Shown here: positions 36,985 through 61,389 of the stretch, piece by piece
Layout: every line of letters starts with the position of its first letter
Numbering within the stretch: position 1 is the stretch's first letter
NCBI GenBank assembly: GCA_022825885.1
Contig: JAJDVY010000048.1
Location: 1 to 64,000 of the forward strand
Length of the DNA: 64,000 nt
Direction of reading: 5' to 3'
DNA from: Nitrospirales bacterium
GTDB taxonomy: Bacteria; Nitrospirota; Nitrospiria; Nitrospirales; UBA8639
Notes under the pieces: model-generated
Database searches by the model: none
The model's input: only the letters and a program-made list of their open reading frames with translations
Told to the model about the DNA's origin: nothing
Position numbers and translations under genes: made by a program

Positions 36985-37103
36985 TGGAGAAGCTGAATGT
37001 CTCCGCTCTGCCACTGGAAGTGATATGGCGATGATTGGGGTGCGCTTCCGACAGACAACCACCGACGGAACCGGCGGGTTGTAAGCCGCCGGGCAGCCAA
37101 GCC

Positions 37104-39392
37104 ATGAGTGCTGTATTTCTGGAACGCTACACGACATTCATATTACGCTACCGATGGCTGGTCCTGACGCTGGCCGTAGCGGTGATGGTGGGTCTGGCAG
37201 CCGGACTCCAATTCATCATCGTCTCCAACGACTGGCGCGACAACTTCGACAAAGACAATCCTCATCGCGTGGCATTCGAAGCCTTGGAGGATACCTATAC
37301 CGCGACCAACGTGGCATTGATCGCGGTGGCGCCCAAGGGGGGGGAGGTCTTCACCCGCGAGGCGCTGAGCGCCGTGGAAGAGTTGACCGAAGCCGCGTGG
37401 CGCGTGCCTTGGTCCACCAGGGTCGATTCCCTGACCAATTACAACCACACCGAAGCGGTCGGGGACGACTTGAAGGTTGAGCGGCTCGTGGAGGATGCCG
37501 GATCGCTCAATGATGACGACCTCGCCCGGATCAAGGGGATTGCGTTAGGCGAGATCAGTGTCGCGGGCCGGCTCGTCTCCCATGACGGGCGCGTTGCCGG
37601 ACTGGTTATCAGTTTCGCCTTTCCCGAGGACCCTGAGGCTGCCCTGACCGAGGTGATCGACCACGTCCGCGGCCTTCTGGACAAGGCCAGGGCGGACCAT
37701 CCGGATATCACCTATCACATGACCGGCGACGTCTTCGTGAACCGCATCATGACAGACGCGGTTGACGCCGATATGCAGATCCTCGCGCCGGTTGCATTGC
37801 TCGTCATCGTGTCCGTCGCCGCCTTCCTTCTGCGCTCTCTGCTGGGTACGCTGTCCCTTGTCGCCATGCTCATCTTCGTCATCGCCTCGACCATGGGCGT
37901 CGTCGGCTGGACCGGCACGCTGCTTAACGCCGCCAACTCCGGCATTCCGATTATCATCATGACGCTCGCCATCGCAGATTCGGTCCATATTATCGCGACG
38001 ACGATGTCCGGCATGAGGCAAGGCCTGGAGAGGGACGCGGCGATTGCCGAAGCCCTGCGCGAGAATGCCTGGCCGGTGTTCCTCACAACGGTCACGACTA
38101 TGATCGGATTCCTCAGTCTCAACGCCTCGGACTCTCCGCCTTTTCGGGTCCTCGGCAATTTCGTGGCGTTTGGCGTGTTCTGCGCCTTCATGTATTCCAT
38201 GACGCTTCTGCCGGCACTGTTGTTGGTGTTGCCGTTGCGCGCAAATCCCGGACGCGCCGGGCGTTCCGCTTTCTTTGATCGCTTGGGGGCCTTCGTCGTC
38301 GCGCGCCAAACGCTCCTGCTCTGGTCCATGACCACCGTGGCCATTGTTCTGGCGGCGGGTATTCCCCGTATCGAGTTGACGGACAACTGGCTGCAGTATC
38401 TGGATGAGCGTTATGAATTTCGGCGCGATACGGACTTTGTCATTGACAATCTGACCGGCATGGAAAACTTGGAATACTCCCTGAATGCCGGGCGCGATGG
38501 TGGCATCACCGATCTCGGCTATCTGCGCAAGATCGACGCTTTCGCCGAATGGTACCGCGCCCAGCCGGAAGTCGCGCACGTCCAGGCCTTTCCGGACATC
38601 ATGAAGCGCCTCAACAAAAACATGCACGGTGATGACCCGGCCTTCTACCGGATGCCCGAAGACTCCGAGCTTGCCGCGCAGTATCTGCTGCTCTACGAGC
38701 TTTCGGTGCCCTTCGGCAGCGACCTCAATAACCGCATCGACGTCGGCCGATCGGCCACGCGCATGACTGTCACCATGAGCAGATTGAATGCTGAGCAGCA
38801 GCGCAAGCTCGACGTGCGCGGGCAGGAGTGGCTCCGCGCGAACGGGCCGGAACTCGCCACCGGGGGATCGGGGTACAGCCTCGCCTTCGCCCACTTGACC
38901 ATTAGCAACAACAAAAACATGTTGCAGGGCACGGTCATGGCCATGGCTCTCATTTCGCTGATCCTGATCGGGATTTTCCGAAGCCTGCGTCTCGGCCTCA
39001 TCAGTCTCGTGCCGAACTTCATCCCCGCAGCCATGGCCTTCGGCGTCTGGGGCTATCTCTACGTCGAAGTGGGGAACGCCGGATCTCTCGTGACCGCGAT
39101 CGCCTTCGGCACCGTCGTCGACGACACGATTCACTTCATGACCCAGTATCTGAAGGCGCGTCGCGAGGGCCGTTCCGCACCAGAGGCGGTGCAAACCGCC
39201 TTTCGTTCAGTGGGGCATCCGCTGTTTATCACAACCATGATCCTGGTACTGGGTTTCCTGGTGTTCGCGTCGTCGGGGTTTGCGATCAGTTTGATGCTCG
39301 GCCTCCTGGTTGCGCTCACGATCGGCTTCGCGCTGATCTGCGATTTCCTGCTCCTCCCGCCCCTGCTGATCGCCATCGACCGAAAGGCGTAA
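37104..39392 (+). CDS. RND/MMPL-type transporter (possible sterol exporter, BstA-like)
   Basis: A 762-residue inner-membrane permease: one N-terminal helix, a periplasmic loop (about 50-200), five helices, a second loop and five helices. Motifs include NSGIPIIIMTLAIADSVHIIATT (D in TM4) and the matching GTVVDDTIHFMTQYL. This is the hydrophobe-exporting RND subgroup that includes HpnN and BstA. With the sterol genes 6 kb downstream and a secreted TPR protein next to it, I infer sterol transport. ATG 37104 is chosen by topology. Codon usage is strongly GC biased compared with the flanking pilus genes. Confidence 0.8.
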   Translation: MSAVFLERYTTFILRYRWLVLTLAVAVMVGLAAGLQFIIVSNDWRDNFDKDNPHRVAFEALEDTYTATNVALIAVAPKGGEVFTREALSAVEELTEAAWRVPWSTRVDSLTNYNHTEAVGDDLKVERLVEDAGSLNDDDLARIKGIALGEISVAGRLVSHDGRVAGLVISFAFPEDPEAALTEVIDHVRGLLDKARADHPDITYHMTGDVFVNRIMTDAVDADMQILAPVALLVIVSVAAFLLRSLLGTLSLVAMLIFVIASTMGVVGWTGTLLNAANSGIPIIIMTLAIADSVHIIATTMSGMRQGLERDAAIAEALRENAWPVFLTTVTTMIGFLSLNASDSPPFRVLGNFVAFGVFCAFMYSMTLLPALLLVLPLRANPGRAGRSAFFDRLGAFVVARQTLLLWSMTTVAIVLAAGIPRIELTDNWLQYLDERYEFRRDTDFVIDNLTGMENLEYSLNAGRDGGITDLGYLRKIDAFAEWYRAQPEVAHVQAFPDIMKRLNKNMHGDDPAFYRMPEDSELAAQYLLLYELSVPFGSDLNNRIDVGRSATRMTVTMSRLNAEQQRKLDVRGQEWLRANGPELATGGSGYSLAFAHLTISNNKNMLQGTVMAMALISLILIGIFRSLRLGLISLVPNFIPAAMAFGVWGYLYVEVGNAGSLVTAIAFGTVVDDTIHFMTQYLKARREGRSAPEAVQTAFRSVGHPLFITTMILVLGFLVFASSGFAISLMLGLLVALTIGFALICDFLLLPPLLIAIDRKA

Positions 39393-43077: not shown

Positions 43078-44250
43078 ATGAGCACGATGTCCATTAAAGG
43101 GTCGAACGCACCCACCGGTTCATCGCCGCCGCCCGTTTTCGTGACCGGTGCGGCCGGACACGTAGGCGCCAATCTCGTGCGCCGGCTGCTGGACGACGGC
43201 ATTCGGGTCCGGGTGCTGCTCAGACACGAGGACAACAATGAAGGCCTGGAAGGTCTTGACGTTGAACGCCGGTTTGGTGATATCCGGGATTTGGATGCAA
43301 CCCGGCGTGAGCTTGAAGGTTGTCAAGGCGTCTACCACGTCGCGGCCAAGATCTCAACCATCGAAGGCAATCGCGCTCATCGCCGGGAAGTGTTCGACTG
43401 CAACGTCGTCGGCACCCGCAACGTGCTGCAAGCGGCGCGGGAGGTTGAAGCCGGTCGGGTAGTGGTGACGGGCTCTTTTAGTGCGGTCGGGTATGATTTG
43501 GATAATCCGTCCGCGCCCGCCAATGAGACGATGCAATTCTATCCCATGGAGCGCACGATGCCGTACGAGCGCAGCAAGTCGCTCGTCGAGCATGAGTGCT
43601 GGCGCGCCGCGGCCAAAGGACAGGATGTCGTAGTGGCAACGTGCTGCGCCGTGGTCGGGCCAGCCGATTTTTTCCCTTCGCGGTTGGGAAGAGCCTTGTG
43701 TGACTATAGCAATCGTAAGCTTCATGCTTACGTTGATGGCGGGTTCGAGTTCGTCGCGGCGCGGGATATTGTCGAAGGTCATCTGTTGTGTATGCGCCAA
43801 GGACGCTCGGGCGAAAAATACATTTTCAGCAGCGAGTACAAAACGATCTCCGAAATCCTGGACCTGTTCGAGGAAGTCTCAGGCGTTCCGCGACCGTGTC
43901 GGCGTATTCCGGCCAACGTGATGCTCGCGTTTTCGGAAATGACGAGCTTCTATCTGAGCCGGTTTCACCCGAGCTTCCCTCAGCGTTTCACCCCCGGCGC
44001 CATTCGCCTGTTACGCAAACGCTTACACGCCGACGTCGGCAAAGCGACACGAGAACTCGGTTATCAGCCAACCGGTATCCGCGCGGCGGTTCATGAGGCT
44101 TATGCATTTCACTACCACCGCAACGCGATCACGAATCCACTTGCGAAACGCCCGCGCGTGAACGTCACGGGGCAAAACGCTATAAGACAAGAGGAAAGTC
44201 TGATGCTGAACCAAAGCATAGAGATCACTCCCGACGGAGGCTCGGTATGA
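43078..44250 (+). CDS. sdmB: SdmB-like 3-beta-hydroxysteroid dehydrogenase/decarboxylase
   Basis: A 390-residue NAD(P)-dependent short-chain-type enzyme. The Rossmann loop is VFVTGAAGHVGANLVRRLL, the catalytic pair is YERSK, and the C-terminal extension is long. In bacterial sterol C-4 demethylation SdmB oxidises the 3-hydroxyl/4-carboxyl intermediate with decarboxylation. Here it directly precedes the Rieske partner, overlapping it by four bases (ATGA). It is the first gene of the operon; AT-rich DNA before it (43000-43077) is a likely promoter region. Substrate is inferred from context, since many epimerase-like proteins share the fold. Confidence 0.85.
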   Translation: MSTMSIKGSNAPTGSSPPPVFVTGAAGHVGANLVRRLLDDGIRVRVLLRHEDNNEGLEGLDVERRFGDIRDLDATRRELEGCQGVYHVAAKISTIEGNRAHRREVFDCNVVGTRNVLQAAREVEAGRVVVTGSFSAVGYDLDNPSAPANETMQFYPMERTMPYERSKSLVEHECWRAAAKGQDVVVATCCAVVGPADFFPSRLGRALCDYSNRKLHAYVDGGFEFVAARDIVEGHLLCMRQGRSGEKYIFSSEYKTISEILDLFEEVSGVPRPCRRIPANVMLAFSEMTSFYLSRFHPSFPQRFTPGAIRLLRKRLHADVGKATRELGYQPTGIRAAVHEAYAFHYHRNAITNPLAKRPRVNVTGQNAIRQEESLMLNQSIEITPDGGSV

Positions 44251-45347
44251 GCCCGGTACCGGGTACCCCACCCGGATTCAAGGAAGCCCGCAACCTGCGT
44301 CAGCAAGCGCGTGCTTCAGGTATGGACCCGAATTATTGGTACGTGGTTGAAGAAGTGCATCGAGTCAAACCGGGGACCGTGGTCGAGGTCATATTCTGGA
44401 AACGCTCCATCGCGCTGTTCCGGGGATCGGACGGCGCGTTTCATGCGATTGAGAATCGCTGCGCGCATCGTCAACTCAAGCTCTCCATGGGCGAGGTGCA
44501 AGGCTGCCGGCTCGTGTGTGCCTATCATGGCTGGCAGTACGATGAAGACGGTCGCTGTGTCGCGATCCCCCACGACTGCTACGGACGAGGTCTCCCGAAA
44601 CTTCCGCTCAGAACCTATCCCGTGAAGGTCCGTTACGGTCTGATCTGGTTGTTCCCCGGGAACCCAGAGCAAGCTGAGTTGCGCCGGGTCCCGGACATCC
44701 CCGAACTCGAAGGCTCTGAACGGTGGGCTTGTGAGCCGCTGGTCTTTACCTGGGCGGCCCACCACTCGATGGTGATCGACAACGTGAGCGACTTCACCCA
44801 CGCCCATCTGCACCGTCGATACCGTCCATTCGAAGAAGGCGCCATCCTCACCCGTTGCGAGACCGTCGGCGACGACGTGCACGTCGCCTATGATACGCAC
44901 GTCGGACGCGGACGTATTTCCGGACTGTTCGTTGATCACAACCGGCTCAACACCAATTACATGGAGCTTTGCTACCAATACCCCTACCAGTGGTCGAACA
45001 CCGATGACGCGATCAAGCACTGGCTTTTTGTCCTGCCGATCGATGAACGGACCACCCGGGCGTTTTTCCTGTTCTACTTCAAGTCGTTGAAATTGCCTAT
45101 GCTGCCGGTGCGTATTCCCCGTTTCGCCATGAACGCGGTGTTGAAGATCTCGAACCGTGTGCTTATCGGTCCGTTACTTGCCCAGGACGGCGTTGCGGTC
45201 GAAGCGGAGCAAGAGGGGTACGAGCGACATTGGGACGCCCCGCCCATCGAGTACAATCCTGTGGTACGGGCTTTTCAAAACGTGACCGTGCGCAAGTGGC
45301 GGGAATACGTGGCGCGTGGGATGGAGAGCGTCAATGCCGGGACCTGA
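44247..45347 (+). CDS. sdmA: SdmA-like Rieske non-haem iron oxygenase (sterol C-4 demethylase)
   Basis: A 366-residue oxygenase. The Rieske cluster is NRCAHRQLK then CAYHGWQYD (CxH...CxxH). The mononuclear iron site is DFTHAHLH in a segment HHSMVIDNVSDFTHAHL. This is the bacterial C-4 demethylase architecture known from Methylococcus. It would remove a C-4 methyl through oxidation, with SdmB completing the reaction. Start overlaps the SdmB stop as ATGA with GGAGG seven bases upstream. It has no electron-transfer partner encoded nearby. Confidence 0.9.
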   Translation: MSPVPGTPPGFKEARNLRQQARASGMDPNYWYVVEEVHRVKPGTVVEVIFWKRSIALFRGSDGAFHAIENRCAHRQLKLSMGEVQGCRLVCAYHGWQYDEDGRCVAIPHDCYGRGLPKLPLRTYPVKVRYGLIWLFPGNPEQAELRRVPDIPELEGSERWACEPLVFTWAAHHSMVIDNVSDFTHAHLHRRYRPFEEGAILTRCETVGDDVHVAYDTHVGRGRISGLFVDHNRLNTNYMELCYQYPYQWSNTDDAIKHWLFVLPIDERTTRAFFLFYFKSLKLPMLPVRIPRFAMNAVLKISNRVLIGPLLAQDGVAVEAEQEGYERHWDAPPIEYNPVVRAFQNVTVRKWREYVARGMESVNAGT

Positions 45348-46434
45348 GCGGAATTTCCTGTTATCCGCACTGTCGGGCGGCACCCTGCTTGAGGCGGCGG
45401 TCATGGTATTGGGGTTTGTCGGCGCGTTGTTTCTGGGTTCAATGCTCCTGCCCGGACGGCGGGTGACGGGACCGGACGTCGAAGGCCCCTCACCTACCTA
45501 CACGCTCAACGGCCTCGCCCTGTTCCTGATGACCATGATTGTCGCCGGTCTTGCCCAAGTCTCCGGCTGGGCTTCTCTTTCAGTGCTGTATACGCACTTT
45601 GCCGCTTTATTCGTGGCGGCCAACGGGTTCGCATTCGCGCTGTCCGGCTGGTTGTATTGGCAGGGAGCCAAGGCCCGGGATGCGCCACCGGGACCGTGGC
45701 GGGGGTTTTTCTTTGGAGTGGAGTTCAATCCATCCTGGTTCGGGGTGGATTTGAAGCTCTTCAGTTACCGTCCTTCCCTCATTGGCCTGGCGTTGCTCAA
45801 CGCCTCGTTTGCCGTCGTGCAGTATGAAACCTACGGCGGGCTGACTTTGTCGATGGCGCTCTATCAGATCTTCACCTTCCTGTACGTGTTCAATTACTTC
45901 CAGTTCGAACATGGAATGATCCACACCTGGGATCTGGTCAGTGAGCGATTCGGATGGATGTTGATTTGGGGAGACTACGTGCTGGTGCCGTTTTTCTACT
46001 GCATCGCCGGCTGGTGGCTGATTCACTCATCGGAACCGCTGTCTCCTATCGCCGTAGCCGCGGTCGTCCTGTTGTTCGTCCTCGGTTTTTGGCTTTTCCG
46101 CGGTGCCAACGAGCAGAAGCACCGGTTTAAGCGTGATCCGGGCATCAGGATTTGGGGGCAACCCGCCCGGTCCTTGGATGGTCGCCTGCTGGTCTCCGGA
46201 TTCTGGGGTATTGGACGACATCTCAACTATACCGGGGAGATTTGCGTCTACCTTGCGTTTACCCTGACCACGGGATTCGCATCCTGGGTGCCCTACCTGC
46301 TACCCCTGTGGCTGACGGGTTTGTTGTGGCATCGCTCGAGACGTGATGAGCGTCGTTGCCACGCCAAGTATGGGAAGCTGTGGGGCCGGTATACACAACA
46401 GGTGCGTTTTTCGATGCTGCCGTTTGTCTATTGA
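45334..46434 (+). CDS. Delta14-sterol reductase (ERG24/lamin-B-receptor family)
   Basis: About 366 residues, eight to ten helices. The family signature is near the C-terminus: GIGRHLNYTGEICVYLAFTL and LTGLLWHRSRRDERRCHAKYGKLWGRYTQQVRFSMLPFVY (NADPH-binding region of sterol reductases), with QFEHGMIHTWDLVSERFGWMLIWGDYV earlier. It would reduce the C14-C15 double bond left by CYP51. ATG 45334 is preferred because GGAGAG lies five bases upstream; it overlaps the Rieske gene by 14 bases. The next gene, CYP51, follows 11 bases later. Confidence 0.88.
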   Translation: MPGPERNFLLSALSGGTLLEAAVMVLGFVGALFLGSMLLPGRRVTGPDVEGPSPTYTLNGLALFLMTMIVAGLAQVSGWASLSVLYTHFAALFVAANGFAFALSGWLYWQGAKARDAPPGPWRGFFFGVEFNPSWFGVDLKLFSYRPSLIGLALLNASFAVVQYETYGGLTLSMALYQIFTFLYVFNYFQFEHGMIHTWDLVSERFGWMLIWGDYVLVPFFYCIAGWWLIHSSEPLSPIAVAAVVLLFVLGFWLFRGANEQKHRFKRDPGIRIWGQPARSLDGRLLVSGFWGIGRHLNYTGEICVYLAFTLTTGFASWVPYLLPLWLTGLLWHRSRRDERRCHAKYGKLWGRYTQQVRFSMLPFVY

Positions 46435-46445
46435 GGAGGGCAAGG

Positions 46446-47855
46446 GTGGAAGATCGGTCTCACGGTGTGGCAATCTTGCGTTCGGCACAGCCGTCGCCGG
46501 CGGCGGCAAAAGCCGTTCCCGAACTTGCGGGCGGGTGGCCGTTGATCGGTCATCTGTTGGCTTTTCTCAAGAATCCGATCTCGATGTTGAGCCGCGGCTG
46601 GCGCGAGCAGGGTGAACTCGTCCGGTTCCGGCTCGGTCCCCGCGAGTTTGTTCTCTTCACCGGACCCGAAGCTCACGACTGTTACTTCAGAGCGCCGGAA
46701 GATCAGCTAAGCGCCAAAGCCGTGTATCAGTTCACGGTCCCCATCTTCGGTCGTGGCGTGGCTTACGACGCCTCCCCCGAGATCATGGACGAGCAGCTTG
46801 GGTTTTTGTTTCCGGCCCTGCGCGAAGCCGCGATGCGCAGATATGCCCGTGTCATGTTCGAGGAGACGATGCAGTTGGTTGACGAACTCGGCGAGGAGGG
46901 GGTCATCGATCTCTCGCACGCACTGAACGAGCTTACCGTCAAAATCGCCAGTCGTTGTCTCATTGGAGAGGAAGTTCGGGAGCAAGTGGACTCGGGTTTC
47001 GCCGAGGCGTATCACGATCTGCAGAACGGCATCAACGTCCTGGGATTTTTTCTCCCCAGGCTGCCTATTCCGGCGCATCGGAGTCGAGACCGGGCCCGGC
47101 GCAAAGTCGCCGAGATCTTTGGCCGGATCATGGCGGCACGCCGGCTTTCCGGGGTTGCGCCCGATGATTTCTTGCAGGCGCTCATGCAGGCCCGCTACAA
47201 GGACGGCCGCGCTTTGAGTGACGACGAGATAACCGGGATCCTGCTGACGGCGTTATTCGCGGGGCAACATACCAGTGCGGTGCTCGCAACATGGACCGGT
47301 CTGGAGTTGCTGAGGGCGCCCTCCTACTTGGCGCAGATAAGAGACGAGATGCAGGACGTCTACCGCGAGACGGGAACCGTGAGCCTCGAAGGTCTCAAGA
47401 GCCAAGTGGCGCTGGAAAACGCCGTACGTGAGAACGAGCGGCTGCACCCGCCGTTGATCATCCTGATCCGCAAGGTACTCAAACCCTTGCGCTACAGAGA
47501 CCATGTCGTGCCCGCCGGCACCCTGGCCGTGGTGTCGCCGGCGGTCGCTCACCGGTTGTCTCACGTGTTCGCCGACCCTGAGCGGTTTGCCCCGGAACGT
47601 TTTGCCTCCCCCGCATGCGAGCACAAACAACACCACTACGCCTTGATCGGTTTTGGCGGCGGCAAACACCGATGCATGGGGGAACATTTCGCGTACCTGC
47701 AAATCAAGGCGATCTGGACCGTGCTGCTTGACCGCTTCGACTTTCATCTCGACTCCGCGTTCCCTGCCCCGAATTACAGTAGCTGGGTGACGGGTCCCAA
47801 GACCCCATGCCGGCTCCGTTATCGCCGCCGCTCACAGCCGAGCGTATTCCGGTGA
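46446..47855 (+). CDS. cyp51: Cytochrome P450 CYP51, sterol 14-alpha-demethylase
   Basis: A 469-residue P450. CYP51 diagnostic segments are YQFTVPIFGRGVAYD (B-C loop), ALFAGQHTSAVLATW (I helix), ENERLHPP (ExxR) and FGGGKHRCMGEHFAY (haem-binding Cys). It would remove the 14-alpha-methyl of lanosterol-type sterols using O2. GTG 46446 is chosen: it lies ten bases after GAGGAGG and after the upstream stop codon at 46434. The open frame upstream sits inside the reductase gene. The stop overlaps the GTG of the next gene by four bases. Confidence 0.93.
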   Translation: MEDRSHGVAILRSAQPSPAAAKAVPELAGGWPLIGHLLAFLKNPISMLSRGWREQGELVRFRLGPREFVLFTGPEAHDCYFRAPEDQLSAKAVYQFTVPIFGRGVAYDASPEIMDEQLGFLFPALREAAMRRYARVMFEETMQLVDELGEEGVIDLSHALNELTVKIASRCLIGEEVREQVDSGFAEAYHDLQNGINVLGFFLPRLPIPAHRSRDRARRKVAEIFGRIMAARRLSGVAPDDFLQALMQARYKDGRALSDDEITGILLTALFAGQHTSAVLATWTGLELLRAPSYLAQIRDEMQDVYRETGTVSLEGLKSQVALENAVRENERLHPPLIILIRKVLKPLRYRDHVVPAGTLAVVSPAVAHRLSHVFADPERFAPERFASPACEHKQHHYALIGFGGGKHRCMGEHFAYLQIKAIWTVLLDRFDFHLDSAFPAPNYSSWVTGPKTPCRLRYRRRSQPSVFR

Positions 47856-50800
47856 GCGACGCGACTTTCGGTCATTACGACGTCGTCATCGTCGGTGCGG
47901 GTCCGACAGGTAGCTTGTGTGCGCTCGCTCACGCACGGAAAGGCGTCCGGGTCGCTCTGCTCGAAGCCAATCCCAACGCTTCCAAACGAATGGCGGGCGA
48001 ATGGTTGCATCCGCCTGCCGTCCGAATGTTGCACGACGTCGGGATCAGGCTCGACACACAGGCCCGCAGCACCACCGGCAAGGGATTCGTGGTGTTCCCG
48101 GAAGACCGCTCGGAGCCGATTGTCCTTCCTTATCGTGATGGGTTTCACGGTTTGGCGTGCGAGCATGCGACGATCGTTTCGAAGCTGCGTGAAGCGATCG
48201 CGCGCAATCCGAACGTCGACTATATTCCCTACGCGCGGGTACGTTCGGTCGAAGACGAGATGGTCACCTTTAGCCGTAACGGCACAGCGGAAACCGTCAG
48301 TGCCGTGCGGATTGTGGGTGCCGACGGACGGGCCTCGGTCGTGCGTCGTTCGTTGGGTTTGTCGATAAAACCGAGGACCTGCTCGCGGATGGTGGGGGTC
48401 ACGATAAGTGGGGTGGACTTGCCGCTGGAAGGTTATGGGCACGTGCTGTGTGGCGGGCCGGGTCCCATTCTCATGTATCGGCTGGGAGAGCAATGCGTCC
48501 GGGTCATTGTCGATGTCCCATCGGACGGCTGGACACCCGGAGACCGGATTGGCTTCCTGTCGGACTCGTATGCCGGTTTGTTGCCGGAAACACTCAGATC
48601 TGCATTTGTGGAAGCGCTGCAGACCGGGCAATTTCACTCCGCGGCCAATGAACTGAGCCCTCGCGTCACGTACGGAAGCCCGCGTCGAGTGCTGATCGGC
48701 GATGCGGCTGGGCACTACCATCCCATGACGGCCGTGGGCATGACGCTCGGTTTCGGCGATGCGCTGACGCTGGCTGAGAGCAAGGACTTTCACGACTTCG
48801 TCTCGAAGCGTTTCCAGGCAACCCACACACCGGAGCTTCTCGCCATGGAGCTCTACGAGGTCTTTGCCGATCACCGGCCCGAGGCAGTGGCGATCAGACG
48901 TGCCATCTACCGGCATTGGAGGACAAGTGCCGCGTTCCGCAACCGAACCATGAGTTTGCTCGCCTGTGAAGACATATCGGTAATCCGTATGAGTTTCGCG
49001 GGTGGCGCGATGGTGTTCCGGGCGTTTGCCGGGATGATTCCGCGATCCTGCAACCAGTTCGCTTGGCGCCGGGCCCGCGACGTCGTTCATGCACTCACCG
49101 TTCGTCTCCTGTGGCTGCTGCGCGGCGTCATGCATCTACACAAGGCGAAAGGCGAGGGCGGAGAAAAAGGCGATCAAACGCGGGATATCTTGGCTCGCGC
49201 GCTTCTGGTCTCCATACCATCGGGCGTGGGTGACTCCCAGCACGTCCGCCCAAAGGAGGTGACTTCACCGGATGCCGGTCCGGCGTTGAGGAGCGCAAGT
49301 GCCCGCCTGTTGAAGCTCCAGGGTGAGGATGGCGCCTGGGAAGGCGAGATGGTTTGGTGTCCCATGCTCACCGCGCAATACGTGTTGTTGCATCACATTA
49401 TGGGGCGGCGGCTCGACCCCGACCGGCGACGTCGTGTGCTGCGCTCCTTTGAGCACACACGTCTCGAAGGAGGCCTATGGAGTCTGCACGAGCACCCGCC
49501 ACCCAACCTGTTTGTCACCACCCTGGTTTACGTCGCGGCAAGATTACTCGGTATTGAACGGGATGATCCGTTAATCGAGCCGGCCGGCCGATTCCTGCAG
49601 GCAGAAGAGGTTCTCGGTATCCCGAGTTGGGGGAAATTCTGGCTGGCACTCCTCAATCTCTACGACTGGCGCGGGGTCAACGCCATTCTCCCGGAACTGT
49701 GGGGCTTGCCGCGCCGGATACCGTTACATCCCTCAAATTGGTACTGCCATACCAGGCTCATCTACATGGCGATGGCGGCGATTTACCCGCACCGGTTTCA
49801 AACGCCCGTCACGTCCGTGATCGCATCGTTGCGAGAGGAACTGTTCCCCCAGGGGTTTGCCAACGTCGATTTTTCCGCGTCCCGCAATCGCTTGCGGGAT
49901 GCGGACCTCTACGCGCGTCCCGGTACGTGGCTCCGAGCCGGATATGGATTGGCGCGGTTGTTTGAACGGTCCCACTCCACGCGCCTGCGCGCCCGGTGCC
50001 TGGACGCAATCATCAAGCAGATTAAATGGGAGTTGCAAACCACCAACCATACGAGCATCTCGCCGGTCAGCGGGTTTCTCAACATCCTGGCCTTATGGCT
50101 GCGTGATCCAAACGATGCCGACTGCCGTCAGGCGCTTGAGCAGTTGGATGGCTGGATTTGGGAGGACGAGGAGCGTGGCGCGCGAGTCACCGGCGCGAGA
50201 AGCAGTTCGTGGGATACCGGCTTCTCCCTGCAAGCCCTGGCAACGGTGCCCGAATTCGACGGGGCTCAATATGCTCTCCGACAAGGAGCCGGCTTCCTGT
50301 GCCGGGAACAGATCGGCACCAGCTTCGAAGGGTTCCGCGAGGCGTATCGGGCCGATCCTAAAGGCGGCTGGTGTTTCCCCGGGGGCTGGCACGGCTGGCC
50401 GGTGAGTGACTGCACCGCGGAAGCGGTGCTGGGGGTCCTTGCCGTCGACCCCAAGGCCATCAGCGAGACAGCGATTAGCGATGCGATTCAATTCATGCTG
50501 CGTAGCCAGAACCGCGATGGCGGTTTTGGCAGCTATGAGGTGCAACGCTCCGCGGTCGGCCTCGAGTGGTTGAATCCGGCCGAGATGTTTGGCGGCTCGA
50601 TGACCGAGCATTCCTATGTCGAGTGCACCACGTCTTGCCTCGCGGCGCTCGCCGCTTGCCGGATGCACTTCCCGCACGTCACGAATCAGGCGGTGCCGGA
50701 TGCGATCTTGAGGGCTGAAGCCTGGCTTCGACGGACCCAATCCAGCGATGGGTCGTGGCGCGGCGTCTGGGGCGTTCAGTTCATCTATGGCACCTTCTTT

Positions 50801-51238
50801 GGCGTCAGGGGGCTGGTTGCCGCCGGGGCCCGTCCCGTCGATCCGGCGTTGCGTTTGGCTTGCCGATGGCTGCTGGATCGTCAGCAGAAAGACGGGGGAT
50901 GGGGCGAACACCACAGCGGGTGTTTGACCGGCCGATACGTTGCGCATGATGAAAGTCAGGTCATCCAAACCGCGTGGGCGTTGATTGCGCTCCTCGAAGC
51001 GGGCGATCCGAATTGGGCCGCGATTTCGCAGGGCGCCCGGTTCTTGCTCAACACGCAGGACGCGGATGGAACATGGCCCAAGCAGGACATGGCCGGGGTC
51101 TTTTTTCGCACGGCGTTGTTGGATTACGTCCTGTATCGAAAGTATTTCCCCTTGCACGCGCTCGGTCTCTACGAGCAGCGTCGCCGGGCCAGGCTGAACC
51201 TGTCGGGTCAAACAAAAACGGATAGGCTCCAGGGATGA
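47852..51238 (+). CDS. Squalene epoxidase-oxidosqualene cyclase fusion protein
   Basis: A 1128-residue fusion (from GTG 47852). Residues about 1-430 are a flavoprotein: HYDVVIVGAGPTGSLCALAH (FAD), and GDAAGHYHPMTAVGMTLGFGDAL (second FAD motif, squalene-epoxidase-like). After a linker (about 440-480), residues about 490-1128 are an oxidosqualene cyclase with the catalytic motif VSDCTAEAVLG (Asp near residue 853) and QW motifs QGEDGAW, QNRDGGF, QSSDGSW, QQKDGGW and QDADGTW. Squalene-hopene cyclases have DDTA instead. It would epoxidise squalene and cyclise the product without release. GTG overlaps the CYP51 stop; ATG 47807 is an alternative. Confidence 0.93.
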   Translation: MSDATFGHYDVVIVGAGPTGSLCALAHARKGVRVALLEANPNASKRMAGEWLHPPAVRMLHDVGIRLDTQARSTTGKGFVVFPEDRSEPIVLPYRDGFHGLACEHATIVSKLREAIARNPNVDYIPYARVRSVEDEMVTFSRNGTAETVSAVRIVGADGRASVVRRSLGLSIKPRTCSRMVGVTISGVDLPLEGYGHVLCGGPGPILMYRLGEQCVRVIVDVPSDGWTPGDRIGFLSDSYAGLLPETLRSAFVEALQTGQFHSAANELSPRVTYGSPRRVLIGDAAGHYHPMTAVGMTLGFGDALTLAESKDFHDFVSKRFQATHTPELLAMELYEVFADHRPEAVAIRRAIYRHWRTSAAFRNRTMSLLACEDISVIRMSFAGGAMVFRAFAGMIPRSCNQFAWRRARDVVHALTVRLLWLLRGVMHLHKAKGEGGEKGDQTRDILARALLVSIPSGVGDSQHVRPKEVTSPDAGPALRSASARLLKLQGEDGAWEGEMVWCPMLTAQYVLLHHIMGRRLDPDRRRRVLRSFEHTRLEGGLWSLHEHPPPNLFVTTLVYVAARLLGIERDDPLIEPAGRFLQAEEVLGIPSWGKFWLALLNLYDWRGVNAILPELWGLPRRIPLHPSNWYCHTRLIYMAMAAIYPHRFQTPVTSVIASLREELFPQGFANVDFSASRNRLRDADLYARPGTWLRAGYGLARLFERSHSTRLRARCLDAIIKQIKWELQTTNHTSISPVSGFLNILALWLRDPNDADCRQALEQLDGWIWEDEERGARVTGARSSSWDTGFSLQALATVPEFDGAQYALRQGAGFLCREQIGTSFEGFREAYRADPKGGWCFPGGWHGWPVSDCTAEAVLGVLAVDPKAISETAISDAIQFMLRSQNRDGGFGSYEVQRSAVGLEWLNPAEMFGGSMTEHSYVECTTSCLAALAACRMHFPHVTNQAVPDAILRAEAWLRRTQSSDGSWRGVWGVQFIYGTFFGVRGLVAAGARPVDPALRLACRWLLDRQQKDGGWGEHHSGCLTGRYVAHDESQVIQTAWALIALLEAGDPNWAAISQGARFLLNTQDADGTWPKQDMAGVFFRTALLDYVLYRKYFPLHALGLYEQRRRARLNLSGQTKTDRLQG

Positions 51239-51303: not shown

Positions 51304-52038
51304 TCAATATCCCAGAATGCTGTAGTTGCCGTCCACAATCAGGTGGATCGAGACATACAAGCCCAGCAGCGCGCACAGCACCCAAAAAGAATTGATCGCA
51401 AGGATGTAGAGGTACAACTCGCGCCGGCTGATCCGGGTTTGCCGTTTGGCTACGAAGAAGCTGACCCAGTAGACCGACGTCACATAGGTCCATTGCCAGA
51501 ACATCATGATCCCGAGAATGCCTGCAAAAAGAGCGGGCAGGAAATCGACCGTATACGCCGCGTACAGGATCAGTGATGGAACCGGAGTCACAAAGCCGTT
51601 GGCAATATCCGCATTGTAGCCGAACGTCCGGCGATCCGCATAGGAGTCGTCGTATTGGGAGTAGGTCGCCCAGACGTCGGCCCAGAGCGTTGGCGACAAT
51701 ACACGTGTAAAAGGGGCCTTTGAGACAAAGAACTCGAAGGCCGGAGTCCGGCCCGATTGACGCAATCGCTCACGCCAATATTCGGCGCGCGTCTCGATAT
51801 GGTTCCGTCGAATGAACAAACACACTTCCCAATAACAAATCAGGAGGTTGATCGAGAAGAACAGGCTCAAAAGAGCATGGATGACGTTCAGGTCCCCGTG
51901 AACGTAGTAGCGTGTGCCGATACCGGACAATGCAAGGGCCGCGACGATCAGTGCCAGGAACAGTCCCACTGGTATCGTTAGGCGGGCTTGGTCCGCGTCA
52001 TGTTCGTGAATCGCTCGATCAGCGCGGGATTCGGGCAT
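51304..52038 (-). CDS. EBP-like (EXPERA) membrane protein, possible sterol delta8-delta7 isomerase
   Basis: A 244-residue protein with four to five helices. The middle aligns by eye with emopamil-binding protein: WATYSQYDDSYADRRTFGYNADIANGFVTPVPSL against human [34 protein letters not shown], and a final INSFWVL matching MNALWLVL (Asn and Trp of the active site). The conserved Glu is Asp here, and the His/Glu pair of the first helix is not obvious (NLLICYWEV), so the activity is uncertain. It converges with the cyclase gene. Confidence 0.45.
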   Translation of the reverse strand: MPESRADRAIHEHDADQARLTIPVGLFLALIVAALALSGIGTRYYVHGDLNVIHALLSLFFSINLLICYWEVCLFIRRNHIETRAEYWRERLRQSGRTPAFEFFVSKAPFTRVLSPTLWADVWATYSQYDDSYADRRTFGYNADIANGFVTPVPSLILYAAYTVDFLPALFAGILGIMMFWQWTYVTSVYWVSFFVAKRQTRISRRELYLYILAINSFWVLCALLGLYVSIHLIVDGNYSILGY

Positions 52039-52168: not shown

Positions 52169-53533
52169 TTATCCTTTCGCTTTTCTGAATCTCCAACCAT
52201 GCAAAATACTCCCGTAATAGTTGAAGGCCCGCCTTGCCACGGGGTCGTCGAAGGGATAGTCCGCGCCGATCTGCGTTGCCGCGGCGAGTCCGCTGACAAA
52301 ACAGGTTTCCTGGCTGTTGATCAGCGTGTGGGCGCCGCAGTGCCACGTCTGTTTCTTGCCTTGAATGAAGCGGAATAAAGGAACGAGCAAGGCCACTTGG
52401 CGCACGTCATGGACGATGTGCTGAAACCACCATCGTTCGATGATCTTTTTTTCATCAATTTGGCTGATCGGATTGTAGGTCACCAGACAGGGCTTGTCGG
52501 AGCGATGAGCCCACGGCTGCTGGTTGTGCATGATGTACGTGATTTCGTAATTGTCCGGCCTGGCACCATATTGTTCGATATGATTGCTTCGCGTTGCCAG
52601 GGGCTTCACGTCGTTATCCGGAAGGACAGAGGAGTCGGAGTGGACGATTGTATGGTTGTGGAGTTCGCTCTCGTACCGTATCGACGAAAGGATATAGCGC
52701 TCCAGCATCGTGGGTTGATCGAGCATCATCAGGGTCTGGTTTGCATTGCAGGCAAAAATCACCTCGTCGAACGCCTCCTTGACGCCGTCCTCGTCCTCGA
52801 CTTCAACGTGCGACGACCGGCGGTGTACTTTCCTGACGGGCCGGTTGAGGTATATCTTGTCCCGGAAATTGGCGGACAGGTTCTCGTAGATGCGGCGTGT
52901 TCCCTGATCCCACGTCTGCATGGGCGTGGAAGTTTCGATATCAAAAAATTCCAGGTATCTCGTAAAGAGGGCCGCAGGCATATCGAACACGTTTGTCGCC
53001 ATCAGAAAATTGACGAACATGGGCTTCAGGACCTTGTACCTGAAGTCCCCGGAATAGCCACCCAGATTCAGAACCGTCCGCATGCTGATGTAATTGAACG
53101 GATTGAGGGCGTTTAGAAATTTCGATTGGCAACGGCTCAACCAGCCGAACCAATGGAGCCGTTTCAGGAGTCGTTGAAACTTGACGATCTCGGGTTGTAG
53201 CTGCCCCCTGATGTCGGAATCGAAATCGTGGGCATAGACGTGGCCACGGTACTTCACGCTGTAGCTGAACCGGGTTTCAATCAACTCAATGCCGAACCTC
53301 TTCAGCAGCAACAGAATGTGTCGATAGACCGACGGAATGCAAGCGGTGACGGAGATGTCGAAGGGAATGGTGCCGCCGTCATCCTGCGGCATATCGGCAG
53401 TAATCGCATTTCCGCCGATCCGGTCCCGGGCTTCGAACAGCCGAAAGTCAAATCGCTCCGGGTGGTGATGCAGCCCCCATGCAGCCCCCAGCCCGGATAT
53501 GCCTCCACCGACAATGGCTATGCGTCGCGGCAT
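52169..53533 (-). CDS. COG2907-like FAD-dependent oxidoreductase
   Basis: A 454-residue flavoprotein of the amine-oxidase/phytoene-desaturase fold. The FAD motif is RIAIVGGGISGLGAAWGL and RLFEARDRIGGNAITAD; the C-terminal TWHCGAHTLINSQETCFVSGLAAATQIGAD binds the flavin. Residues like ERYILSSIRYESELHNHTIVHSDSSVLP resemble COG2907 proteins often found with lipid-modifying genes. ATG 53533 is preferred over GTG 53548. It may oxidise a sterol or lipid in this locus; no substrate can be inferred. It lies between the EBP-like and P450 genes on the same strand. Confidence 0.75.
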   Translation of the reverse strand: MPRRIAIVGGGISGLGAAWGLHHHPERFDFRLFEARDRIGGNAITADMPQDDGGTIPFDISVTACIPSVYRHILLLLKRFGIELIETRFSYSVKYRGHVYAHDFDSDIRGQLQPEIVKFQRLLKRLHWFGWLSRCQSKFLNALNPFNYISMRTVLNLGGYSGDFRYKVLKPMFVNFLMATNVFDMPAALFTRYLEFFDIETSTPMQTWDQGTRRIYENLSANFRDKIYLNRPVRKVHRRSSHVEVEDEDGVKEAFDEVIFACNANQTLMMLDQPTMLERYILSSIRYESELHNHTIVHSDSSVLPDNDVKPLATRSNHIEQYGARPDNYEITYIMHNQQPWAHRSDKPCLVTYNPISQIDEKKIIERWWFQHIVHDVRQVALLVPLFRFIQGKKQTWHCGAHTLINSQETCFVSGLAAATQIGADYPFDDPVARRAFNYYGSILHGWRFRKAKG

Positions 53534-53661
53534 GGTCCCTGTCCCCACCGGTTGCTGTTGGCTGTTGGCCGGTTCATGCGACGTTCCTCACGAAGGCTGA
53601 CGTTTGGGGGACGTTGATAGTCTCTCCCCCGTGTCCCGGTCTCATAGGCCATCATGGTACG

Positions 53662-55698
53662 TCAGGCGGGCAGTTTGCGTCTTTGCTCGGCGATTCGGAA
53701 CTTCATCCTCTTGCTCGGGGACATCGACGGAAACGGGTTGAACCGGAGCTTGTAGTTCGCAGGCGACACCTCAAGCGTAAAGTAATGCGCGACCATGAGC
53801 AGGTTGACGGCCAGTTGCAGTTCCACCCACCGGAAGCCGAGGCACGTATGTGTGCCCAGTCCGTATGGCGCGTATCCGGGGCTGAGGTGCTCGTTACGCG
53901 AAGGCAGATAGCGATCGATATCGAATGAGAAAGGGTTCGGGAAGACGTCTTCCATGTAATGCGGGGCCGTCTGAGCAATGAAGACGCGTGTCCCGACCGG
54001 CAGTTCGTAGTCTTCGATTACGCACGAATTCATCACGTTGCGAAGAGACATGGGCACGATGGGATACAGACGCATGCACTCCATGATGAAGCGGTTCGTG
54101 ACGTCGATCTCTGACTTGGCGAAGCCTTTCTTGTCCGGATCGGGGCCGTCGAACAGGGCGTCAGCCTCGCTTCGGATCCGGCTATAGAGTTCAGGGTGCG
54201 ACGCCATGGCGTAAAGCGCGAAGGCCAAAGCATCGCCGAGGTACATGCTGGCAAGCATGGGTGCCGAAAGAGAGAATCCCATGTTCGACTCGGGGAGGAA
54301 TTGCGGGTCGCTGGTGTAGAGGCTGAGCAGGTCATCCGTAAGGGTGCGCGGGCAACCGGCCCGCTGGGCTGGCGTGTGGACGCTCTGGACCCTTTGCACC
54401 GCCACGTCGATAGCCTTGGCAGGGCGTTTCATATCCGGGGTATGCAGCAGGAACTTGGGCAGTATTTTCGCGACGTGGGTGGTGAGCGCCCGCTCCTTGA
54501 ATTTTATCAGGTCTTCCACAATGTCCTGCGAATCTATGTTGAGAACGAGGGGGGATATTTGTGCGTTGATCATGCGCCGGCACAGGCGGACCGCATGCAC
54601 GGAGGAGCCCACTTTCCAATCCCCCATAAATGCGCGGATATGTCCGTAGAGAGGATTCAACGAGCCTTCCAGCCTTTCGCGGGAGTAGCCCGGTTGCATG
54701 GCCTTGCGTAGACGGAAGTGTTCGGCGCCGTCGAGGGCGGGTATCAGCCCTGAGGCGCCGTAGACCTTCTCGATATCGGTGAAATAGTCCCTGGATCTCA
54801 GGTACATGCGTCCGTTCCGGTGGACCCACCGGTTGACCTTGGCCCCGGAGAGGAAGGTCATGGGTTGCTGGAACGGCGGGCGGATCTGAAATACCGGCCC
54901 GTATTTTTTCGTCAGATCTGCAAAGAGCGCGGGAATGTTGCCCTTGCGTACATGCGGATTGATCAGGAGCTTTGGCAGAGAGACGCTCGGAATCTCCTTC
55001 CTGACCAGGGAGGAATGTCGAAACAAGGGGCCGATGAGGGTCTGGGTGACTGCATTGGCGATGGACCGGCCGATCAAATCTGTCTTGCAGATCGTCTGGA
55101 TCCATTTTTCTGACTCGTCATCGAGCTGGAAGATGAAGCGAAAGACGTCACACGTATTAACGAGGCAAATTACGATGATATCTCTCGGATCGGGAATTTC
55201 CTTCGTGAAGATAGCTCTGCTGATACGCGCTTTGATGAATTCGCTGGCAGTGCCTTTTTGGATGGTGCCGTGCAATTCTGTCTGCCACCCCGTACGAGGC
55301 AGCGTCCAGAAATCGCCGTCGTGGTGTTCCAGGATCTTCAAGTCAACCAAGCGGTCCAGAGTCAAATCAATGATTGACTCCGCGCGTGCGGCGAACCGTT
55401 CAATCCAGAACCGGGTGTTCCGTTGAGTTGGTTCGCTGGCAATCTCTTTCAGGATGGGGTCCAGGGTGGGATTGCCCGTTTCGGTCCGGTCCACAAGAAA
55501 CAGGGATTCCATGTCCGTGTCGATGCGCGACAGGAGGGAGAGTTCCGCGAGCACTGCGCCGCCGACGGCACAGTTCAAGTTCCAGCCGGGCACTTGATGA
55601 AAGTAGCCGGTCTCCTGATTAAGGAGCATCAGGATCAACTCTTCGGGCAAACTAAGCGTTGGGGGTGTCAGGCTTTCTTTAGCTTCAGCAATCGCCAT
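53662..55698 (-). CDS. GPP34 (GOLPH3-like) domain fused to a cytochrome P450
   Basis: A 678-residue protein. Residues about 15-215 match GPP34/GOLPH3: LSLPEELILMLLNQETG, GWNLNCAVGGAVLAELSLLSRID, then a helical end DLTLDRLVDLKIL. Residues about 225-678 are a P450 with KYGPVFQI, ExxR as ECMRLYP, and haem-binding YGLGTHTCLGFRW (Tyr in place of the usual Phe). The I helix reads ASMYLGDALAFALYAMASHPE and lacks the usual acid-Thr pair. GOLPH3 proteins bind phosphoinositide-like membranes in eukaryotes, so the fused part may anchor the P450 to a membrane. GGAAGGG precedes the start. Confidence 0.88.
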   Translation of the reverse strand: MAIAEAKESLTPPTLSLPEELILMLLNQETGYFHQVPGWNLNCAVGGAVLAELSLLSRIDTDMESLFLVDRTETGNPTLDPILKEIASEPTQRNTRFWIERFAARAESIIDLTLDRLVDLKILEHHDGDFWTLPRTGWQTELHGTIQKGTASEFIKARISRAIFTKEIPDPRDIIVICLVNTCDVFRFIFQLDDESEKWIQTICKTDLIGRSIANAVTQTLIGPLFRHSSLVRKEIPSVSLPKLLINPHVRKGNIPALFADLTKKYGPVFQIRPPFQQPMTFLSGAKVNRWVHRNGRMYLRSRDYFTDIEKVYGASGLIPALDGAEHFRLRKAMQPGYSRERLEGSLNPLYGHIRAFMGDWKVGSSVHAVRLCRRMINAQISPLVLNIDSQDIVEDLIKFKERALTTHVAKILPKFLLHTPDMKRPAKAIDVAVQRVQSVHTPAQRAGCPRTLTDDLLSLYTSDPQFLPESNMGFSLSAPMLASMYLGDALAFALYAMASHPELYSRIRSEADALFDGPDPDKKGFAKSEIDVTNRFIMECMRLYPIVPMSLRNVMNSCVIEDYELPVGTRVFIAQTAPHYMEDVFPNPFSFDIDRYLPSRNEHLSPGYAPYGLGTHTCLGFRWVELQLAVNLLMVAHYFTLEVSPANYKLRFNPFPSMSPSKRMKFRIAEQRRKLPA

Positions 55699-55785
55699 CA
55701 GCTTTGCCCTTCCTGTATTCCTGCGATATCATAAAAAAGATACCCTCTACTGAAGGGATGATAAGTGTACCCCTATGGCTTGGGC

Positions 55786-55810
55786 GAGGCAAGGCAAGGC
55801 AAGGCAAGGT
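55786..55810. repeat. AAGGC pentanucleotide microsatellite next to a promoter
   Basis: Five units (GAGGC, AAGGC, AAGGC, AAGGC, AAGGT) directly precede the predicted -35 box of the downstream flavoprotein gene, in the divergent intergenic region. Copy-number change would alter spacing of any upstream activator site. Confidence 0.8.
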
Positions 55811-55811
55811 C

Positions 55812-55839
55812 TTGACGGGGACATTGGTGTTGCTAAAAT
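55812..55839 (+). promoter_or_regulatory. Predicted sigma70-like promoter of the flavoprotein-desaturase pair
   Basis: TTGACG (55812-55817), a 16-base spacer, then TAAAAT (55834-55839) with TGC before it (extended -10). Transcription would start near 55846. GGAAAGGA lies before ATG 55875. Confidence 0.6.
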
Positions 55840-55874
55840 GCTATAAGTCTTCGGAAAGGAATAATTTGATATTC

Positions 55875-56960
55875 ATGGATTCACGACGTGAACATGACGT
55901 GTTGATTGTAGGTGGTGGACCCGCAGGGTCTACGTGCGCCCGATTCGCAAGAAAGCACGGTCTGAATGTGGCCTTGATTGAGCGAACTGGCAAATGCCAC
56001 GTGAAGAGGACCAGCGCGGGAATCTTTGATCATACCTGGCCCGCACTCGAACTGTCGCCCCACGAATACCCATACCCAATGCGCTCACCCAATGCTTCCG
56101 TATTCAGAACCCTCAATAACGACAAAGAATTGACGACGATATTTAAGATTATTGTGGACAAACTGAATCGGTACGTCTATTTGCCCAATCGAGATGAATT
56201 TGACAATTGGTTGTTGTCATTAGCCAATCAGGATGGTTGTATCATCATTCGAGATCATACTGTGCGACCCGAAGATATTGAGTTCAACAACAAGTCATAT
56301 GCAGTTCGCGTCGGGAACGAGATCCATACCGCGCCGTTTCTTGTCGGCGCTGCGGGCACCTTCTGTCCTGTCTATCGACGATTTTTTAATAACACGAGTT
56401 CATGGCCCGGTCAAATGACGCTTCTTACGGAAGCAGAAGTACCTGAGCGGGAATACAGCGGCCCATCTTACGTCAGCTATTTTAACTTCATGGGGGGGGG
56501 GGTATTCGGATGGACGTACATCATAGGTGACGGGAGGCTTCACATAGGCACGGCTCGACTTTCGAGACCACCAAAACTTAAAAAGAAAGATATACTGTTC
56601 GATGAGTTTGTGGACTTTATACGTTCGAAAGGGTACTTGGCACGGAACTTTGACCCCAAGCAATACCATGTGAGCAGTGGGATTATTCGAGCGTTCGCTA
56701 ATCGTCCGATGACGACACCTGATGGAAGCTGCCACGTTATAGGGGATGCGGCGGGGCTGCTTCAGAATGATTGCTATACTGGCATAACGAATGCCATCTT
56801 CTCTGGCCGCTATTGTGCCGATGCGATAGCACAGGCTGAAACAAGCCCGCATATCCGAAAGAATCTCAATCGATATTTCTTCCAGGACGTTCTGCAAGAC
56901 ATGATTGGCAACGTTGTACCTGCCTTCAAATATCGCCGGTCGTTTTTGCCTGTCAAGTAA
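55875..56960 (+). CDS. Geranylgeranyl-reductase-like FAD-dependent oxidoreductase
   Basis: A 361-residue flavoprotein of the GGR/UbiH fold: DVLIVGGGPAGSTCARFARKHG (FAD), and VIGDAAGLLQNDCYTGITNAIFSGRYCADAI (second FAD motif and CYTGI loop typical of GGRs). It could saturate an isoprenoid C=C, for example a sterol side-chain double bond, but this is speculation. A G11 run is in the coding region at 56492-56502. The DNA is clearly more AT rich than the cyclase operon, which suggests a different origin. Start chosen by GGAAAGGA. Confidence 0.75.
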   Translation: MDSRREHDVLIVGGGPAGSTCARFARKHGLNVALIERTGKCHVKRTSAGIFDHTWPALELSPHEYPYPMRSPNASVFRTLNNDKELTTIFKIIVDKLNRYVYLPNRDEFDNWLLSLANQDGCIIIRDHTVRPEDIEFNNKSYAVRVGNEIHTAPFLVGAAGTFCPVYRRFFNNTSSWPGQMTLLTEAEVPEREYSGPSYVSYFNFMGGGVFGWTYIIGDGRLHIGTARLSRPPKLKKKDILFDEFVDFIRSKGYLARNFDPKQYHVSSGIIRAFANRPMTTPDGSCHVIGDAAGLLQNDCYTGITNAIFSGRYCADAIAQAETSPHIRKNLNRYFFQDVLQDMIGNVVPAFKYRRSFLPVK

Positions 56961-61271: not shown

Positions 61272-61331
61272 TGACGTTACTAAGGAAGCGTTCGCATGAG
61301 TTGACGGAATGGAGGAACTGACTACACCGCC

Positions 61332-61366: not shown

Positions 61367-61389
61367 GGAAGGAGAACGGAGGAGAAAGC

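What the first reader, a model, noticed from the sequence alone, without database searches (positions are those of the whole stretch)
53662..55698. GOLPH3-like domain fused to a P450
A bacterial GPP34 domain sits N-terminal to a P450 catalytic domain. In eukaryotes GOLPH3 binds PI4P membranes and glycosyltransferases. A fusion to a lipid-modifying P450 in a sterol locus suggests a role in membrane-lipid sensing or recruitment, which has not been assigned to bacterial GPP34 proteins as far as I know.
Basis: partly seen in the sequence, partly recalled or inferred. Interest (0 to 1): 0.85.

Follow-up and report, generated by a model that had tools for sequence, protein, structure and literature searches.

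The report
GOLPH3-domain P450 of sponge-symbiont sterol clusters
Bacteria of at least six phyla, apparently sponge symbionts, share an enzyme in which a relative of the animal Golgi protein GOLPH3 is fused to a heme enzyme (P450) that has lost its usual oxygen-activating residues and sits among sterol-modifying genes, so the role of bacterial GOLPH3-like domains can now be tested.

Summary
The fusion is real. The minus-strand ORF 53662-55698 (678 aa) is GPP34 (residues 17-203, Pfam E 1e-27) plus P450 (241-661, E 4e-37). An AlphaFold2 model of the N-domain matches only GOLPH3 and Vps74 in the PDB (best E 2.5e-9). It lies beside SdmB, SdmA, ERG24, CYP51 and a squalene-epoxidase/oxidosqualene-cyclase fusion. 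I found 39 more loci in MAGs labelled Nitrospirota, Pseudomonadota, Chloroflexota, Gemmatimonadota, Binatota, Myxococcota and Actinomycetota. 38 of 44 loci examined have sterol-type neighbours within 12 kb. Two features are new here. First, the whole clade (49/49 P450 domains) lacks the I-helix acid-alcohol pair; a Tyr is invariant, while sister fused P450s (8/8) and close unfused ones (3/3) keep it. Second, the two domains have conflicting histories: GPP34 halves largely follow host taxonomy, P450 halves do not, and the window gene is a mosaic with a breakpoint near the linker. Best reading: a sterol-tailoring P450 with atypical chemistry, held near the membrane or a partner by an acidic, host-adapted GPP34 docking domain. 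Substrate and partner are inferred.

The parts
53662..55698 (-). GPP34-P450 fusion protein, 678 aa
55090..55650 (-). GPP34 (GOLPH3-like) domain, residues 17-203
   Evidence: Pfam PF05719 E 1e-27; AF2 model and Foldseek to GOLPH3/Vps74
54934..54996 (-). approximate recombination breakpoint at the domain boundary, about residues 235-255
   Evidence: window-wise identity switches relatives here; conflicting domain trees
53716..54978 (-). P450 domain, residues 241-661
   Evidence: Pfam PF00067 E 4e-37; Foldseek
54232..54255 (-). abnormal I-helix motif LASMYLGD (residues 482-489): acid-alcohol pair lost, Tyr486 invariant
   Evidence: 43/43 and 49/49 sequences; coordinates checked
54070..54081 (-). 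ExxR motif (E540, R543), invariant
53836..53865 (-). heme-ligand loop YGLGTHTCLG, Cys619 invariant
52169..53548 (-). FAD flavoprotein of the amine-oxidase fold (nearest solved: LkcE; weaker: P. acnes putative aminooxidase 2b9w); same strand, 113 bp after the fusion; recurrent neighbour (20 of 44 loci)
51304..52038 (-). 244-aa hydrophobic (probably membrane) protein, no Pfam family, same strand
47807..51238 (+). squalene epoxidase fused to oxidosqualene/squalene cyclase (1143 aa)
   Evidence: Pfam SE and SQHop_cyclase N/C
46356..47855 (+). CYP51 sterol 14-demethylase (canonical I-helix AGQHT)
   Evidence: E 6e-105 to M. capsulatus-type CYP51 structures
45316..46434 (+). sterol C-14 reductase family (ERG4/ERG24)
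   Evidence: Pfam E 3e-68
44247..45347 (+). Rieske/VanA_C oxygenase, SdmA-like by position and domains
43078..44250 (+). SdmB-like NAD(P)-dependent dehydrogenase/epimerase-fold protein
   Evidence: NCBIfam NF052578 E 5e-87, below its curated cut-off
37035..39392 (+). MMPL/RND transporter with sterol-sensing-domain similarity
   Evidence: recurrent neighbour of the fusion elsewhere

Best explanation
The protein is a sterol-tailoring P450 whose N-terminal GPP34 domain acts as an acidic docking module. It keeps the basic P450 domain next to the inner membrane or a host-specific membrane partner, where sterol substrates are. The P450 keeps the heme pocket but has lost the oxygen-activating acid-alcohol pair, so it probably does not carry out ordinary O2-dependent hydroxylation; a rearrangement, isomerisation, dehydration or peroxide-dependent reaction on a sterol is more likely. 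It works with a KshA-type Rieske oxygenase, an amine-oxidase-fold flavoprotein, a sterol 24-C-methyltransferase and an MMPL/RND transporter. These form a module that spreads between phyla, mainly by exchange of the P450 half while the resident GPP34 half is kept. Shown here: fusion, folds, heme motif, motif loss, neighbours, transfer and domain conflict. Inferred: the sterol substrate, the reaction type and the docking role.
For: Domains and folds. Neighbours: within 12 kb, 38 of 44 clade-A loci have at least one of Rieske-KshA (28), flavoprotein (20), SMT (19), MMPL (14), OSC or ERG24. Loci of sister clades with a normal I-helix have none except one MMPL. Within the genus the fusion occurs in 11 of 14 genomes; the OSC fusion and the flavoprotein are each in 10 of those 11 and in 0 of the other 3. 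Motif: Thr absent and Tyr invariant in 49/49, while fused sisters (8/8), unfused relatives (3/3) and the Planktothrix P450 keep Thr; heme Cys and ExxR 43/43. Docking: acidic GPP34 against basic P450; GOLPH3 itself recruits enzymes through an acidic membrane-facing surface (PMC12494035; PMC8421267). Host adaptation: nine Nitrospira GPP34 halves group together (93/87), their P450 halves do not (AU p 7e-49), and each domain rejects the other's tree.
Against: No biochemical evidence for substrate, reaction or membrane binding. The P450 is closest to CYP51 only in a general way (about 20% identity). 6 of 44 loci have no recognised sterol neighbour. Some P450s without the Thr are still monooxygenases (EryF, own knowledge), so non-oxygenase chemistry is a guess. 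The GPP34 grouping of Nitrospira is moderately supported (93/87), the phylum-change count differs only 7 against 10, and MAG labels may be wrong.
Confidence: 0.42

Rival explanations
1. GPP34 is a true lipid sensor that binds a bacterial anionic lipid or a sterol and recruits or regulates the P450.
For: GOLPH3 fold. Trp39 is invariant in the clade and lies two residues from the position of GOLPH3 Trp81.
Against: All four PI4P-site residues are substituted, although stand-alone bacterial GPP34s keep the Arg174 equivalent. Strongly acidic domain. No obviously hydrophobic hairpin.
Confidence: 0.15
2. GPP34 is only an oligomerisation or stability domain for the P450, or an intramolecular cap on its basic proximal face (for example imitating an acidic redox partner).
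For: Opposite charges of the two domains; both domains equally conserved in sequence.
Against: A purely intramolecular role predicts co-inheritance of the two halves, but their trees conflict strongly.
Confidence: 0.2
3. An ordinary P450 hydroxylase of sterols or other terpenoids that uses Tyr486 or water in place of the Thr; the GPP34 fusion is a historical accident.
For: Heme motifs intact. P450s lacking the Thr but still oxygenating are known (own knowledge). Nearest unfused relative outside the group sits in a cyanobacterial triterpenoid-like cluster.
Against: Clade-wide replacement of the pair in 49/49 with an invariant Tyr and purifying selection on both halves.
Confidence: 0.2
4. The P450 acts on a non-sterol compound and its place in sterol loci is linkage by shared transfer.
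For: Six of 44 loci lack sterol neighbours. A closed same-genus genome (G011) has the fusion but no oxidosqualene cyclase.
Against: G011 keeps SMT, Rieske, flavoprotein and MMPL beside the fusion, which points to acquired sterols. Recurrence of the same partners across several phyla.
Confidence: 0.15

Closest known systems
GOLPH3/GPP34 family (human GOLPH3, yeast Vps74)
   Same: Pfam family over cut-off; predicted fold matches only GOLPH3/Vps74; acidic character
   Different: PI4P-site residues not kept; no clear hydrophobic hairpin; no Golgi or COPI; fused to an enzyme
Bacterial stand-alone GPP34 proteins (for example S. coelicolor SCO4440, PMC12402492)
   Same: same domain; many genomes carrying the fusion also carry stand-alone copies
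   Different: fused GPP34 domains form their own group (99/97) apart from 31 stand-alone ones; SCO4440 has no assigned molecular function in that paper
CYP51 and bacterial sterol P450s
   Same: best-scoring solved sequences are M. capsulatus-type CYP51 (E 4e-29 with profile); sterol locus
   Different: about 20% identity; lost acid-alcohol pair; the locus already has a true CYP51
P450s without the I-helix Thr (CYP74, prostacyclin and thromboxane synthases, CYP152 peroxygenases; own knowledge)
   Same: heme thiolate kept, oxygen-activation residues lost
   Different: no sequence relationship tested; Tyr at this place is, to my knowledge, not typical
Clusters of steroid genes (CSGs) of Ircinia symbionts (PMC9531527) and the Melophlus msb cluster (PMC7074536)
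   Same: ERG24-CYP51-cyclase order, SdmB-like gene, bifunctional epoxidase/cyclase, SMT nearby, horizontal transfer between phyla
   Different: neither paper names GPP34, and the passages read there do not describe this P450 fusion

Membership tests
GPP34/GOLPH3 family | Pfam PF05719 match above curated cut-off | tested here: met
   97.9 bits against 29.1
GPP34/GOLPH3 family | GOLPH3 fold | tested here: met
   Foldseek 9qpq, 3kn1, 2zih, 4tu3 only; TMq 0.59-0.66
GOLPH3 as PI4P effector | PI4P-site residues R90, R171, N172, R174 | tested here: not met
   G46, E107, S108, I110 (residues from PMC12494035)
GOLPH3 as membrane-inserting protein | hydrophobic beta-hairpin | tested here: inconclusive
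   short hairpin in the domain model, low confidence, variable and polar sequence
GOLPH3 as adaptor | electronegative client-binding surface | tested here: inconclusive
   whole domain strongly acidic; surface map not available
Cytochrome P450 | Cys-ligand loop and ExxR | tested here: met
   43/43
Cytochrome P450 monooxygenase | I-helix acid-alcohol pair | tested here: not met
   absent in 49/49 of the clade
CYP51 | CYP51-level similarity and I-helix motif | tested here: not met
   about 20% identity; motif ASMY instead of AGQHT
Sterol-pathway enzyme | acts on a sterol | not testable with these tools
   genomic context only

The most novel reading that the evidence does not exclude
A new class of heme-thiolate sterol enzyme, not a monooxygenase, carried on a GPP34 docking domain that stays adapted to the host bacterium while the catalytic half is swapped between phyla inside sponges; in some symbionts (closed genome G011) it modifies sterols that the bacterium cannot make itself.
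Probability: 0.27. Interest if true: 0.85.

Novelty: new variant of a known kind. Interest (0 to 1): 0.68.

Why it matters
Bacterial GPP34 proteins have no assigned molecular role in the papers found here. A fusion to a defined enzyme type in defined loci gives the first handle: the P450 half gives a product to measure, the GPP34 half a localisation to test. If the chemistry is unusual, it adds a P450 reaction to bacterial sterol metabolism, which matters for sponge sterols and for steranes used as fossils of early animals (PMC10070321 shows that symbiont enzymes already complicate this). The domain conflict suggests a general way in which enzymes cross phyla: catalytic half new, docking half resident.

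Tried and rejected
(1) Artefact or contaminant contig: rejected as far as tested; the neighbouring genes 60075-63473 look like the two ATP-citrate lyase subunits used by Nitrospira (own reading of the translations, not scanned), and the same arrangement recurs in same-genus genomes. (2) Rosetta-stone split pair in Planktothrix: the 187-aa neighbour of its P450 is a truncated P450, not GPP34. (3) Split pair in G004 (L062): the reading frames differ, and a near-identical intact fusion exists in G011, so a frameshift is likelier than a natural split. (4) Context of stand-alone GPP34 genes as a clue: STAS, PIN/antitoxin, flavoprotein and ammonium-transporter neighbours, nothing shared. (5) Plasmids: no record covers 80% of the protein. 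(6) Viral contigs: none. (7) Alignment of the I-helix is uncertain by one residue (whether Tyr replaces the acid or the Thr), but the Thr is absent either way.

Full report
OBSERVATION. The ORF at 53662-55698 lies on the minus strand and encodes 678 aa. Pfam finds GPP34 at residues 17-203 and P450 at 241-661, both far above cut-off. It is the only GPP34 in the window's genome. AlphaFold2 on a 35-sequence alignment gives pLDDT 80; its best PDB matches are P450s. Residues 1-227 modelled alone match GOLPH3 and Vps74 and nothing else with E<1e-3. A profile of bacterial GPP34s also finds GOLPH3 by sequence (E 4e-17).

SETTING. Upstream on the plus strand are an SdmB-like dehydrogenase, an SdmA-like Rieske oxygenase, an ERG24-type reductase, CYP51 (E 6e-105) and a squalene epoxidase fused to a cyclase. 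The fusion, an amine-oxidase-fold flavoprotein and a 244-aa hydrophobic protein follow each other on the minus strand. The nearest relatives by full length are in MAGs named Nitrospira sp., and the window's genome has 2.4 Mb.

DISTRIBUTION. A scan of one genome per species found 39 loci with 52-84% identity. Their MAG labels cover Nitrospirota, Alpha- and Gammaproteobacteria, Chloroflexota, Gemmatimonadota, Binatota, Deltaproteobacteria/Myxococcota and Actinomycetota. Some labels look doubtful: L038 (Binatia) and L054 (Deltaproteobacteria) pair closely, as do L028 (Chloroflexota) and L043 (Rhodobacteraceae), so I count at least six phyla with caution. The isolate prefixes RHO, IRC, COS and APA match sponge hosts of PMC8163846, and 'jk' may refer to the Ircinia study PMC9531527; sponge origin is inferred from names, and for the other prefixes it is not established. 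In Nitrospirota, GPP34 above cut-off occurs in 7 of 246 sampled genomes, all of the window's genus, and always in a 674-700 aa frame. In the class of Dehalococcoidia locus L034, 32 of 245 genomes have GPP34; by my count, 25 have both a stand-alone and a fused-length copy, 4 only stand-alone and 3 only fused (not corrected for phylogeny). In the class of alphaproteobacterial locus L025, 28 of 385 genomes have GPP34, mostly stand-alone. Fused-length was judged by open-frame length.

NEIGHBOURS. Using tblastn seeds on loci of at least 9 kb, 38 of 44 have one or more sterol-type genes within 12 kb: KshA-type Rieske 28, flavoprotein 20, sterol methyltransferase 19, MMPL 14, LolA-like 8. There was no random-locus control; the contrast is internal: loci of the sister clades have none of these except one MMPL. 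In the genus, three genomes lack the fusion; these also lack the OSC fusion, flavoprotein, SMT and Rieske gene. The closed genome G011 has fusion, SMT, MMPL, flavoprotein and Rieske in about 10 kb, but only a distant (28%) squalene-cyclase relative and no OSC fusion. Of 31 non-Nitrospira genomes, 14 have the OSC fusion. So sterol synthesis in the same cell is not required, although most are draft genomes.

ACTIVE SITE. The heme Cys, ExxR and the FDIDRY region are invariant or nearly so in 43 sequences. The I-helix reads LAS[VM]YLGD. In the tree of P450 domains the window's clade (49 rows, 100/100) has no Thr and an invariant Tyr, with one residue deleted in that alignment. Eight fused sister P450s read (A/V/S)G-x-(D/H)-T, three unfused relatives read AALDT, and the Planktothrix P450 reads GGMET. 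The loss is therefore derived within GPP34-fused P450s. An ungapped alignment puts Tyr at the Thr and Val/Met at the acid; the Thr is missing either way. The role of the pair in proton delivery is established knowledge (for example PMC9366932, abstract seen).

GPP34 HALF. Sites named for PI4P binding in GOLPH3 (PMC12494035) are not kept; stand-alone bacterial relatives keep only the Arg174 equivalent. The domain is acidic (-18 net) and the P450 domain basic (+7). GOLPH3 holds enzymes by an acidic surface that faces the membrane (PMC12494035, PMC8421267), so an adaptor role is the closest functional parallel, though this is inference and stand-alone bacterial GPP34s are acidic too.

HISTORY. 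All fused GPP34 domains fall together against 31 stand-alone ones (99/97; six rows marked 'sa' inside that group are fused genes cut by contig ends or missed by my motif test), which fits a single fusion. Inside the clade the halves disagree. GPP34 halves of nine Nitrospira form one group (93/87), as do the Gemmatimonadota. Their P450 halves are split and monophyly is rejected (AU p 7e-49, lnL difference 117; a first test with 11 rows gave p 5e-7). Each alignment rejects the other's topology by 349 and 848 lnL units. The window gene shows the switch directly: at residues 151-200 it is 0.85 identical in DNA to L005/L006 and 0.73 to L022, at 351-400 it is 0.59-0.64 and 0.87. Phylum-label changes are 7 on the GPP34 tree and 10 on the P450 tree, so 'host-adapted' is a tendency, not a rule. 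The test group was the host genus, named before the domain trees were built, but after the first P450 tree had been seen.

PRIOR WORK. The steroid gene clusters and their transfer among Ircinia symbionts are known (PMC9531527), as are the bifunctional epoxidase/cyclase (PMC7074536) and symbiont SMTs (PMC10070321). A search for GPP34 with cytochrome P450 gave three unrelated papers. GPP34 in actinomycetes has been noted without a molecular role (PMC12402492). Subscription literature and preprints were not searched, so the fusion may have been seen elsewhere.

VERDICT. Observation confirmed. Interpretation partly supported. A new variant combining two known families, with two unexpected properties (lost oxygen-activation motif, half-gene exchange). 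Function remains inferred.

Noticed in passing
L091:6862-8877, L063:7090-9096, L120, L122-L125, L152: A second group of GPP34-P450 fusions (about 30% identity to the window's) keeps a canonical I-helix and is not found in sterol clusters; substrate unknown.
   Followed up: partly
L127-L129 (G296, G294, G293): Close unfused P450s (46-47% identity to the second group) with AALDT motif; whether they lost GPP34 or branch before the fusion is unresolved.
   Followed up: partly
L062 (G004:C81:3211-5189): GPP34 and P450 parts in different frames, near-identical to an intact relative in G011; likely a frameshift or sequencing error.
   Followed up: partly
L057:12175-14133 and L035:10383-11630: Tandem second copies of the fusion (42% and 55% identity to the window protein).
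   Followed up: partly
L088 (G311:C35): Three stand-alone GPP34 genes in a row.
   Followed up: no
G294:C51 and G307:C28: Stand-alone GPP34 genes within about 14-16 kb of the epoxidase/cyclase fusion, from match coordinates only.
   Followed up: no
window 52169-53548: Flavoprotein related to LkcE and more weakly to a P. acnes putative aminooxidase (2b9w) recurs beside the fusion; a sterol double-bond isomerase role is possible but untested.
   Followed up: partly
L068 (Planktothrix agardhii plasmid p2): Plasmid cluster with squalene cyclase, squalene synthase family, several P450s and a KshA-type Rieske protein, resembling a triterpenoid pathway.
   Followed up: partly
window 55698-55875: Short divergent intergenic stretch between the fusion and a geranylgeranyl-reductase-family FAD protein, if the latter starts at an internal ATG.
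   Followed up: no
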